Shown: positions 53,500-57,299 of the stretch, one piece after another | How the letters are laid out: each line of letters begins with the position of its first letter | Position numbering within the stretch: the first letter of the stretch is position 1 | Assembly (NCBI RefSeq): GCF_020687245.1 | Contig: NZ_JAJEQG010000004.1 | Coordinates: forward strand, 80,158-144,157 | Direction: 5' to 3' | DNA length: 64,000 nt | Source of the DNA: Faecalibacterium longum CLA-AA-H243 | GTDB taxonomy: Bacteria; Bacillota; Clostridia; Oscillospirales; Ruminococcaceae | Position numbers and translations under genes: made by a program | Notes under the pieces: generated by a model | Told to the model about the DNA's origin: nothing | Databases searched by the model: none | The model's input: only the letters and a program-made list of their open reading frames with translations

Positions 53500-53528
53500 T
53501 TGATTGTTGGAAAATAATATGGTACTAT
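53500..53528 (+). promoter_or_regulatory. Promoter of the YcxB-like gene
   Basis: TTGATT and TACTAT are separated by 17 bases; divergent from and adjacent to the kinase promoter. Confidence 0.55.
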
Positions 53529-53550
53529 GACCAAAAAGGAGGGTATTTTT

Positions 53551-54078
53551 ATGTCTCAGCCGATCTCCGTTTCCGTCCAGATGGATGCTGCATCCTTCCA
53601 CGATTTTGCCGCCTTTGACCTGCTGCGCCACCACAAGGCGTGGCACCGGCCTCTGGTGTTCACGGCCATTTTGCTGGTGTCTGCCGGCTTCTGCCTGTCG
53701 CAGGTGGGCCAGAAAGACGGCGCAGCTCTGCTCACGGTGGTGCTGGCCGTGGTGGCGCTGGGCGTGCCGGCTGTCTACTTCTGGACGTTCTTCCACTCCC
53801 TGAGCCTCCAAATCAAAAAGATGGGCCTGCCCCGCCCCTTCTACCGGCTGCTGCTGGACGACGAAGGACTGTCGGTCTGGATGGCCGGCGAGCAGGACAA
53901 GCCTGAGGCGAGCCGCAAGTATGCGTGGCACGATCTGCATCTGGCCTACCGCACCCCCAACGCCATTTACCTCTATGTCCAGCAGAATCAGGCCTATCTG
54001 CTGAACGACAGCCTCGACGCCGCATGGAGCCTGCTGCAAGCCTCCCTCCCGGCAGAGCGCCTGCATGATATGCGCTGA
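53551..54078 (+). CDS. YcxB-like small membrane protein
   Basis: The 175-residue protein begins with a short N-terminal stretch, has two membrane helices near residues 33-80 and a C-terminal beta-rich domain containing LDDEGLSVW, YAWHDLHLAYRTPNAIYLYVQQNQAYLL. This layout and the W.D..... segment resemble the YcxB family (PH-like fold), whose function is unknown. The ATG at 53551 is preceded by AAAGGAGGG; an ATG 8 codons earlier lies before that site. It ends at a strong terminator. Confidence 0.75.
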   Translation: MSQPISVSVQMDAASFHDFAAFDLLRHHKAWHRPLVFTAILLVSAGFCLSQVGQKDGAALLTVVLAVVALGVPAVYFWTFFHSLSLQIKKMGLPRPFYRLLLDDEGLSVWMAGEQDKPEASRKYAWHDLHLAYRTPNAIYLYVQQNQAYLLNDSLDAAWSLLQASLPAERLHDMR

Positions 54079-54082
54079 AGAC

Positions 54083-54118
54083 AACAAAAACCGCCCTTTT
54101 CAGGGCGGTTTTTGTTTT
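54083..54118 (+). terminator. Terminator of the YcxB-like gene
   Basis: 15-bp perfect stem AACAAAAACCGCCCT/AGGGCGGTTTTTGTT with a 4-base loop and TTTT. Confidence 0.93.
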
Positions 54119-54119
54119 T

Positions 54120-54254
54120 AACCTCTCAGTCTCGCATTCGCTCGACAGCTCCCCTAGCGAGGGGAGCCTCTGGCGAAGAGGAAAGGCTTTACGAAATGCC
54201 AAAGCCTCCCCTCGTTAGGGGAGGTGGCAGCGCGTAAGCGCTGACGGAGAGGTT
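54120..54254 (+). repeat. Full-length 135-bp palindromic element of the AACCTCTCAGTC family
   Basis: Ends AACCTCTCAGTC and GACGGAGAGGTT are imperfect inverted repeats. Inside are two GC-rich hairpins, GCTCCCCT-AGCG-AGGGGAGC and CCTCCCCTCGTTAGGGGAGG, and GGCTTT/AAAGCC. There is no open reading frame. The related copies at 6592 and 17105 show it is dispersed; it could be a MITE- or REP-like element. Confidence 0.8.
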
Positions 54255-54272
54255 GACTCCAAAATACAAAAA

Positions 54273-54414
54273 CAGGCAGCGCCGTGGAAAGGAGGAGAAA
54301 GCGGCGCTGCCTGTGTATGAGAACTCCTAAACATTTGCGGCTGCTAGGAGGTTGTTGGTAGTCTGTCCGCCGCCGTGGCTATTGCCTCGCATAGGTGGGG
54401 GACAGTATTTTTTT
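54273..54414 (+). ncRNA. Candidate structured small RNA of three hairpins ending in a terminator
   Basis: H1 is a perfect 12-bp stem (54273-54284 with 54302-54313) whose loop shows AAAGGAGGAG. H2 is CTCCTA/TAGGAG (54324-54329 with 54345-54350). H3 pairs CTGTCC with GGACAG (54363-54368 with 54400-54405) and is followed by T7, a terminator. The H1 loop and the H2 right arm both can pair with the H2 left arm CTCCT, so alternative folds exist. A 14-codon frame (ATG at 54317) overlaps H2. No upstream promoter was clearly seen, so it could also be a leader of the MATE gene. Confidence 0.5.
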
Positions 54415-54621
54415 AGGGGCGCGGCACCCGCTGCGGGGCTGCGCATGAATCCTGCCTGCATGGCATTTATGGAAAGTCAAAAGCCGGAGATGGGGGATCT
54501 CGTTCTTGTCTTCCCGACTGCACCTTTATTGTACCGGATAAAAATGGAGTTTCTTTGAGTTAGTTTTGAACAATCTGCAAACAAGATGTGGAAAGTCTGA
54601 GGGCTTTCTTTTCCGTTCTGC
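54415..54621 (+). other. Gap between the RNA candidate and the MATE promoter
   Basis: About 200 bases without a gene, becoming AT-rich toward the MATE promoter. No repeat, operator or frame with a ribosome site was found. Confidence 0.5.
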
Positions 54622-54650
54622 TTGACATTCGGCACAGAACGATGTATTGT
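54622..54650 (+). promoter_or_regulatory. Promoter of the second MATE gene
   Basis: TTGACA and TATTGT with a 17-base spacer, 55 bases upstream of the ATG. Confidence 0.7.
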
Positions 54651-56170: not shown

Positions 56171-56761
56171 ATGCAGACAACAAAACCCGAAACCGCACAG
56201 CAGCGCCCCACCGGCGCACGAATGGCCCTGCTGATGCTTCTTTACTTTATCAAAATCGGCGCGTTCACCTTTGGCAGCGGATGGAGCATCATTGCCCAGA
56301 TGGAGCGGGAGTTCGTGGACGAGCGCGGCTGGATGACCAAGAGCGATCTGCTGGAGCTCATCGCCGTGGGCAAGAGCCTGCCCGGCATCATGGTGGCGAA
56401 CATCACTCTGCTCTTCGGCTATCAGATGGCCGGGGTGCTGGGCGGCATCTGCGCGGCCATCGGCCTGTGCATCCCCGCCGTCGTCACCCTTACCATCGTG
56501 ACGGCCATCTACGACGCCATTAAAGATAACTACTGGGTCTGGTCGGCCCTCAAGGGCGTCCAGTGCGCCGTGGCCCCCATCATCGGCGGCGCGGCCATCT
56601 CTCTCGGCAAAGATGCTCTGACCAGCGCGATGCCCATCATCATCTGTGCCGTCGCCTTTGTGCTCTGTTACTTTACGTCCATCAGCAATCTGACGCTGGT
56701 GGTGGCCGGTGTGGTCATCGCGCTGGTCTGGATGGGGGTGAGCGAACATGGCCATGTTTGA
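56171..56761 (+). CDS. chrA: Chromate transporter, first half-size subunit
   Basis: The 196-residue protein has six helices and the CHR domain signature FFKIGAFTFGSGW-like (FIKIGAFTFGSGWSIIAQME) followed by GKSLPGIMVANITLLFGYQMAG. Half-size ChrA proteins act as heterodimers and are annotated as chromate or anion transporters; the true substrate in gut anaerobes is unknown. AGGAGG lies 8 bases before the ATG. The stop overlaps the second half gene by 14 bases. Confidence 0.92.
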   Translation: MQTTKPETAQQRPTGARMALLMLLYFIKIGAFTFGSGWSIIAQMEREFVDERGWMTKSDLLELIAVGKSLPGIMVANITLLFGYQMAGVLGGICAAIGLCIPAVVTLTIVTAIYDAIKDNYWVWSALKGVQCAVAPIIGGAAISLGKDALTSAMPIIICAVAFVLCYFTSISNLTLVVAGVVIALVWMGVSEHGHV

Positions 56762-57299
56762 GACCCTCGTTCAGCTCTTCGCCGCGTTTGCGAAGATCGG
56801 CTTCACCAGCTTCGGCGGCACCTCCATGATCCCCCTCATCATGGATGAAATGTCCTCCCACGGCTGGATGACGGATGCCGATTTGACGAACCTCATCGCC
56901 ATCGCCGAGATGACACCCGGCTCTCTGGGCGTCAATGCCGCCACCTTTGCAGGCACCAAGACCGCCGGGATGCCGGGCGGCGTCTTCGCGGTCCTGGGCG
57001 TCCTCAGCCCCACCCTGACGCTGACGCTTCTGGCGGCGGCGTTCTTCCAGAAGTTCCGCACCAGCAAGGTGATGAGCTACATCATGAAAATCGTCAAGCC
57101 TGTCTGCATCGGCATGGTGCTGGGTGTTCTGGTGGGCCTCTGCCGCCAGACCTACATCACCGAGGCAGGAGGCATCAGCCTGCCGGGCATCGCCATCGGC
57201 ATCCTCTGCTTTGTACTGCTCCAGAAATTCAAGCTCAGTGTGCCGAAGGTCATCGGCATCGCGGCGGTGCTGGGGCTGGTGTGCTTCGGGGTGTTTTGA
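56748..57299 (+). CDS. Chromate transporter, second half-size subunit
   Basis: The 183-residue protein shows FAKIGFTSFGGTSMIPLIMDE and AEMTPGSLGVNAATFAG, the second-half CHR signature, with six helices. Together with the upstream gene it makes the paired short-chain CHR transporter. Translation is coupled by the overlap; the ATG at 56748 or the in-frame ATG two codons later could serve. Confidence 0.92.
   Translation: MAMFETLVQLFAAFAKIGFTSFGGTSMIPLIMDEMSSHGWMTDADLTNLIAIAEMTPGSLGVNAATFAGTKTAGMPGGVFAVLGVLSPTLTLTLLAAAFFQKFRTSKVMSYIMKIVKPVCIGMVLGVLVGLCRQTYITEAGGISLPGIAIGILCFVLLQKFKLSVPKVIGIAAVLGLVCFGVF

What the first reader, a model, noticed from the sequence alone, without database searches (positions are those of the whole stretch)
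54273..54414. Three-hairpin RNA candidate with a Shine-Dalgarno-like loop and alternative pairing
Seen: H1 (12-bp perfect stem, loop AAAGGAGGAG), H2 (CTCCTA/TAGGAG), H3 followed by T7. The GGAGGAG loop can pair with the CTCCT arm of H2, so a switch between two folds is possible; a 14-codon frame overlaps H2. It sits between a repeat element and the MATE promoter and matches no RNA class I can name. It may be a small RNA, a ribosome-decoy element or a peptide-controlled leader.
Basis: partly seen in the sequence, partly recalled or inferred. Interest (0 to 1): 0.7.

Follow-up and report, generated by a model that had tools for sequence, protein, structure and literature searches.

The report
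New small RNA of gut bacteria
The three hairpins are the 3' half of a conserved, predicted RNA gene on the opposite DNA strand of Faecalibacterium and its relatives, which matches no family in the Rfam library and likely acts as a small regulatory RNA, in this genus perhaps by masking the ribosome-binding sites of other messages.

Summary
The hairpins are real but were read on the wrong strand. H1 is the likely terminator, H2 the second hairpin and H3 the core hairpin of a predicted minus-strand RNA gene at about 54523-54264, nearly twice the length of the finding. It was found in 29 of 31 genomes of the genus (25 by BLASTN, 4 more by covariance model), once in the window's own genome. A model search also matched 22 further genera of the family sample at E<=0.05 and one genus of another family. 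Stems covary (0 of 500 shuffles on four measures, 1 of 500 on the fifth). No Rfam 15 family matched. Neighbours differ: MATE beside 2 of 26 genus loci, a metH-like gene beside 19 of 26, queH upstream of 19 of 38 loci outside the genus. So it is neither a MATE leader nor part of the 54119-54257 repeat, and the 14-codon frame is not kept. In the genus the terminator loop is complementary to Shine-Dalgarno sequences (23 of 27 loci); I propose trans-acting translational repression. Against it: the loop is uncommon outside the genus, no extended target was found, and no Hfq. No transcript was examined. The gene is well supported; the mechanism is inferred.

The parts
54528..54580 (-). Promoter-like block: TTGTTCAAAA.. 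then -10-like TACAAT at 54533-54528; no canonical -35
   Evidence: Aligned in 21 genus loci; similar layout by eye in many loci outside the genus. Against: the sequence-only model of this block (R2) matched only 2 of 16 loci given to it, and consensus scans found no promoter here.
54264..54523 (-). Predicted small-RNA gene, about 255-260 nt (5' end estimated from the -10-like box)
   Evidence: single match in the own genome
54406..54523 (-). 5' part of the RNA: start GGTGCAGTC, then a stretch of variable length and sequence; lost in L006
54363..54405 (-).
54387..54392 (-). Highly conserved bulge AUGCGA (AUGC(C/G)A)
   Evidence: In all 22 aligned genus loci and, by eye, in 28 of 38 loci outside the genus; not in L039
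54354..54362 (-). Conserved linker ACUACCAAC after the core hairpin (ACNAMCAA in wider alignment)
54324..54351 (-).
54273..54313 (-).
   Evidence: Terminator helix: 9 G-U and 0 A-C cells on this strand; covariation.
54286..54298 (-). Terminator loop UCUCCUCCUUUCC, complementary to Shine-Dalgarno sequences
   Evidence: lost in L024, changed in L026
54264..54272 (-). T-rich end TTTTTGTAT
   Evidence: T-run of 4 or more in 26 of 26 genus loci

Best explanation
Window 54264-54523 on the minus strand is a conserved, predicted small-RNA gene with a promoter-like block and a likely intrinsic terminator, and its RNA likely acts in trans, in Faecalibacterium by using a C/U-rich terminator loop that would pair with Shine-Dalgarno sequences and block translation of target messages. 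Shown from sequence: the unit is conserved from promoter-like block to terminator in the genus, its stems covary, its neighbours change, and it has one copy in this genome. Inferred: that it is transcribed from this strand, that the loop pairs with mRNAs, and that the conserved core hairpin (AUGCSA bulge, ACNAMCAA linker) holds the RNA in shape or binds a protein. I put the gene itself at about 0.9 and the SD-masking step at about 0.4 to 0.45; the score is for the whole statement.
For: Homologues in 29 of 31 genus genomes. Minus-strand alignment from promoter-like block to T-run; T-run in 26 of 26. G-U against A-C cells: terminator 9 to 0, second hairpin 20 to 8; fold z lower on minus in 17 of 22. 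Covariation on A1: 15 of 34 pairs with a change on both sides, 0 of 500 shuffles. Neighbours change. Unpaired anti-SD 6-mers in 23 of 27 genus loci, 33 of 65 overall against 7.4 expected.
Against: Raw folding energy is lower on the plus strand in 26 of 26, and the core stem shows 9 G-U to 8 A-C cells, no strand signal. Outside the genus unpaired anti-SD 6-mers occur in 10 of 38 loci (2.6 expected), so the loop is not the family-wide feature; L024 has lost it. No longer complementary target: besides itself only two 3-mismatch sites in G000, and in genus g59 one 3-mismatch site in 1 of 4 genomes. No Hfq match in G000. No consensus promoter. Not found in G007 or G026. No transcript data were examined.
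Confidence: 0.42

Rival explanations
1. The same minus-strand RNA gene, but its job is to bind a protein or small ligand through the conserved core hairpin; the anti-SD loop is a local add-on in Faecalibacterium.
For: The core hairpin, linker and A/U-rich tail are kept across genera while the anti-SD loop is not (10 of 38 outside the genus); no Hfq and no extended targets.
Against: No partner or ligand identified; the loop sequence is strongly kept in the genus (23 of 27); the AUGCSA bulge is missing from 10 of 38 loci outside the genus (by eye).
Confidence: 0.36
2. A cis-acting leader or riboswitch-like element of a neighbouring gene.
For: DUF896 follows on the same strand in 19 of 38 loci outside the genus.
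Against: In the genus the neighbours are different (metH-like upstream in 19 of 26, MATE divergent in 2 of 26); a terminator hairpin ends the RNA and TATAAT-like boxes often follow it (by eye).
Confidence: 0.06
3. The first reader's plus-strand leader with a 14-codon peptide, or a plus-strand small RNA ending at 54414.
For: T7 after H3 in the window; plus-strand energy lower in 26 of 26; ATG kept in 15 of 26 by script (16 with L006).
Against: T-run after H3 missing from the 12 more divergent loci and L006; no conserved sequence upstream of H1; 14-codon frame in 8 of 26 (9 with L006); G-U/A-C balance of terminator and second hairpin favours minus.
Confidence: 0.05
4. A short minus-strand mRNA; the listed 44-aa frame at 54327-54461 would be its product.
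For: An ATG at the AUGCGA bulge opens a frame in the window.
Against: Indels around the core shift the frame between loci and no SD precedes the ATG (by eye); helices covary.
Confidence: 0.03
5. Part of the neighbouring repeat or another mobile element.
For: The repeat at 54119-54257 lies next to it, and the RNA sits in different places in different species.
Against: One match in the own genome against 45 of the repeat; most homologues lack that repeat beside them (by eye); the core pattern is not in viral contigs (0 matches).
Confidence: 0.02

Closest known systems
C/U-rich anti-SD small RNAs of Firmicutes (RsaE/RoxS type; recalled, no call)
   Same: Free-standing small RNA with terminator and unpaired CCUCC/UCCUUU-like sequence that could pair with SD sequences
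   Different: Different anatomy (core hairpin with AUGCSA bulge, anti-SD in the terminator loop); no homology found through Rfam; function untested
6S RNA (Rfam RF00013)
   Same: Single-copy conserved RNA of similar length
   Different: 6S is a separate gene in G000 (56.5 bits, over the cut-off) and matches 30 of 31 genus genomes elsewhere; this RNA gives no 6S match
CcsR1 (Rfam RF02791)
   Same: Weak match on the minus strand over the terminator, 17.4 bits, CCUCCUCC motif
   Different: Far below the gathering score of 65.3 bits
Candidate structured RNAs of Fremin and Bhatt 2021 (PMC8040213; abstract and passages seen)
   Same: 3161 intergenic candidates from human microbiomes; this RNA could be one of them
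   Different: 'Faecalibacterium' does not occur in the main text; the supplement could not be read, so overlap is untested

Membership tests
Any Rfam 15 family | Match at or above the family's gathering score | tested here: not met
   0 in the whole window; weak matches only around the RNA; 0 at E<=0.05 in 11 loci; in 13 more loci none over cut-off at the RNA, one sub-threshold NrrF match (30.8 of 60 bits) on the opposite strand overlapping L097
6S RNA | RF00013 covariance-model match | tested here: not met
   The genome's 6S match is at G000:C1:59881-60084, not here
Free-standing bacterial small RNA | Own promoter, own terminator, no fixed neighbour | tested here: inconclusive
   Terminator and changing neighbours met; promoter only promoter-like; transcript not tested
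Conserved structured RNA | Compensatory changes above chance | tested here: met
   four of five measures 0 of 500 shuffles, one 1 of 500; (alignment fitted to the model) 0 of 500 on all five. R-scape not available.
Anti-SD base-pairing small RNA | Unpaired anti-SD sequence | tested here: inconclusive
   23 of 27 genus loci but 10 of 38 outside (2.6 expected); pairing with mRNA not tested
Hfq-dependent small RNA | Hfq in the same genome | tested here: not met
   PF17209: no match in G000 at E<=0.001; the control rang in 5 of 14 genomes
Leader peptide / attenuator | Conserved short frame with RBS, and a fixed downstream gene | tested here: not met
   14-codon frame in 8 of 26 (9 with L006), SD 20-25 nt away; MATE beside 2 of 26

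The most novel reading that the evidence does not exclude
This is a core RNA of the bacterial order to which Faecalibacterium belongs, older than its genera, built around an AUGCSA / ACNAMCAA hairpin that binds a dedicated protein or metabolite; in Faecalibacterium it carries a copy of the ribosome's anti-Shine-Dalgarno sequence in its terminator loop, making it an Hfq-free global brake on translation.
Probability: 0.2. Interest if true: 0.8.

Novelty: new member of a known kind. Interest (0 to 1): 0.6.

Why it matters
Faecalibacterium prausnitzii was the most abundant species in the healthy stool samples of one study (PMC6749105, passage seen). None of the titles listed by my paper searches is about a small RNA of this genus (only 15 of 20, 15 of 121, 15 of 276 and 10 of 185 papers were listed). 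A single-copy RNA gene kept across the genus and recognisable in other genera suggests a basic role in bacteria where, in this genome, no Hfq was found; the alignment gives a ready model for annotating and testing it.

Tried and rejected
Plus-strand MATE leader, peptide frame and repeat-element readings: rejected on neighbours, frame and copy number. 6S RNA: elsewhere. A methionine link (metH-like gene upstream in 19 of 26 genus loci; an ABC operon that looks like metQNI in L043 and L044): not seen in other genera, so context only. Pairing of 5' GCAGUC with GACUAC: broken in L014 (by eye). A seed complementary to an RBS plus start codon in g59 and g21 (by eye): no conserved target in g59; g21 not searched. 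A Rex-like operator: spacing does not fit (by eye). A first codon-based gene caller picked antisense frames and was redone. Model R2 (promoter block) reached only 2 of 16 loci.

Rows dropped: L027 (24-nt chance match, G026), L051 and L053 (terminator-like hairpin only) before the counts. Near-duplicates L008, L012, L013, L020 were left out of A1-A5 and of the 22-locus z test; L006 (5' half lost) out of A2-A5. L123 and L124 were looked at and not counted as members. matches in G044, G055, G065, G158, G166, G195 and G274 were not examined by eye. A4 was fitted to model R1; the A1 structure was drawn by hand from these same sequences; so both lean towards it. In one search the script picked another stretch than the aligned core in at least L019, L100 and L108. 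In one search its terminator cut removed the loop in L016 and L025. In one search its -10 pick is clearly off in several loci (such as L044, L087, L095, L099, L101).

Full report
WHAT IS THERE. The finding covers only part of a larger conserved unit.

HOMOLOGUES. BLASTN with window 54255-54440 gave matches in 26 of 31 genomes of the genus; the one in G026 (24 nt) is chance, leaving 25 genomes and 26 loci (G025 has two). The covariance model R3 was then given the five genomes without a match and G026; it found the RNA in G010, G018, G019 and G020, not in G007 or G026: 29 of 31. The own genome has one copy. Two contigs with an exact core match are titled Faecalibacterium prausnitzii; their lengths (20712 and 181717) equal those of G015:C2 and G012:C33, so I take the genus to be Faecalibacterium.

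STRAND AND ANATOMY. Aligned on the minus strand, the loci share a block with a -10-like box (TACAAT/TATACT) and AAGGGTGCAGTC, a 5' hairpin, a variable stretch, the core hairpin (H3), ACTACC, a second hairpin (H2), ATAC, and a GC-rich hairpin (H1) followed by T-runs. L006 keeps the box but has lost the 5' half. A run of at least four T is present in 26 of 26. On the plus strand the T-run after H3 is missing from the 12 more divergent loci and L006, and beyond an A-rich stretch nothing upstream of H1 is conserved (by eye). Wobble pairs: terminator 9 G-U to 0 A-C, second hairpin 20 to 8, core stem 9 to 8. Fold z-scores are lower on minus in 17 of 22 loci (means -4.35 and -3.15; last 150 nt, 4 near-duplicates left out). 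Against this, raw folding energy is lower on the plus strand in 26 of 26, which I ascribe to its G-rich composition.

COVARIATION. On the MAFFT alignment A1 (22 sequences, hand-drawn structure) 95.5% of cells pair, 15 of 34 pairs change on both sides in at least one sequence, and 57 cells do; none of 500 shuffles reaches these or the covariation score, one reaches the count of pair types, and slid structures reach at most 6 pairs and 14 cells. On A4 (35 sequences, fitted to model R1) 30 of 33 pairs change on both sides. Folded singly without a model, the core closes in 32 of 37 motif-bearing loci outside the genus and 59 of 64 in all; L093 gave no motif, and in a few loci the script picked another stretch. 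Two loci replace CUG/CAG by CCG/CGG (L091, L092).

RANGE. R1 first matched 21 of 396 genomes of the family sample at E<=0.01. R3 matched 48 of 396 at E<=0.05, in 23 of 126 genera including Faecalibacterium; by my count 20 of these genera have a match at E<=0.01. In the order sample R3 matched 10 of 394, among them two genomes of one genus of another family, whose sequences show the CUG..CAGAC core and an AUAUA tail. In the class sample only the own genome and one doubtful match of 391. Searches of more than 40 genomes used strict filters. Four genomes have two matches (G159, G180, G301, G413). The AUGCSA bulge is in 28 of 38 examined loci outside the genus (by eye).

FREE-STANDING. In the genus, MATE is next to 2 of 26 loci and a MetH-like gene (Pterin_bind and B12-binding domains) lies upstream on the same strand in 19 of 26. 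Of 38 loci examined outside the genus, queH (Pfam) lies upstream and divergent in 19, directly adjacent in 18, and DUF896 (Pfam) downstream in 19. L043 and L044 have an ABC operon upstream whose permease (BPD_transp_1) and ATPase look like MetI and MetN. TATAAT-like boxes follow the terminator in many loci (by eye). The RNA does not depend on one neighbour.

PROMOTER. In the genus, and by eye in many other loci, CAAA-like motifs recur every 10-12 nt (TTTGCAAA, TGTTCAAA, CCACAAA, GCCACAAA) before a TATWCT-like box, without a canonical -35. Phased A-tracts or an activator site would explain it (inference). Consensus scans found no promoter there, and model R2 matched only 2 of 16 loci of other genomes.

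WHAT IT IS NOT. No Rfam 15 match over a cut-off at the RNA; 6S is elsewhere. The repeat at 54119-54257 gives 45 matches in this genome, the RNA one. An ATG at the place of the 14-codon frame is found in 15 of 26 loci by script and a 14-codon frame in 8 (one more of each with L006, which the pattern missed); others have none or another length.

HOW IT MAY WORK. In most genus loci the terminator loop shows UCCU(C/U)CUUU, complementary to strong SD sequences and like the 3' end of 16S rRNA (recalled). Anti-SD 6-mers lie unpaired in 33 of 65 loci against 7.4 expected from shuffles: 23 of 27 in the genus, 10 of 38 outside against 2.6. No extended target was found, nor Hfq in G000. I commit to trans-acting SD masking in Faecalibacterium as the likeliest mechanism, with protein or ligand binding by the core as a close rival; both may hold.

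NOVELTY. The kind (free-standing small RNA) is known; this family is not in Rfam 15. It may be among the anonymous candidates of PMC8040213, of which I saw the abstract and passages, not the supplement. Of PMC6749105 (stool small RNAs) I saw two passages, which name no such RNA. Other papers were seen only in search listings.

Noticed in passing
window 54119-54257: Repeat element next to the RNA's 3' end; 45 BLASTN matches in the own genome, most 84-95% identical.
   Followed up: partly
window 54086-54119: AAAAACCGCCC..GGGCGGTTTTT, an inverted repeat with T-runs on both strands after the YcxB-like frame; source of several weak Rfam leader matches.
   Followed up: no
window 54590-54650: Terminator-like hairpin (54590-54609) and a TTGACA-17-TATTGT promoter-like site (54622-54650), both on the plus strand before the MATE gene; the latter is the likely MATE promoter, divergent from the RNA.
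   Followed up: no
window 53527-54078: Frame with a YcxB match just below Pfam's cut-off (21.7 of 23.3 bits).
   Followed up: no
window 56171-57299: Two adjacent chromate-transporter halves.
   Followed up: no
upstream of the RNA in the genus and other loci (L002-L110): CAAA-like motifs repeated every 10-12 nt before the -10-like box; cause unknown, perhaps DNA bending or a regulator.
   Followed up: partly
L040-L052, L087-L106, L110: Gene order queH (divergent) - RNA - DUF896 - purA or a cation-efflux gene recurs in several genera, perhaps the ancestral place.
   Followed up: partly
L101 866-1038 (minus): Lysine riboswitch match (81.5 bits) about 2 kb from the RNA.
   Followed up: no
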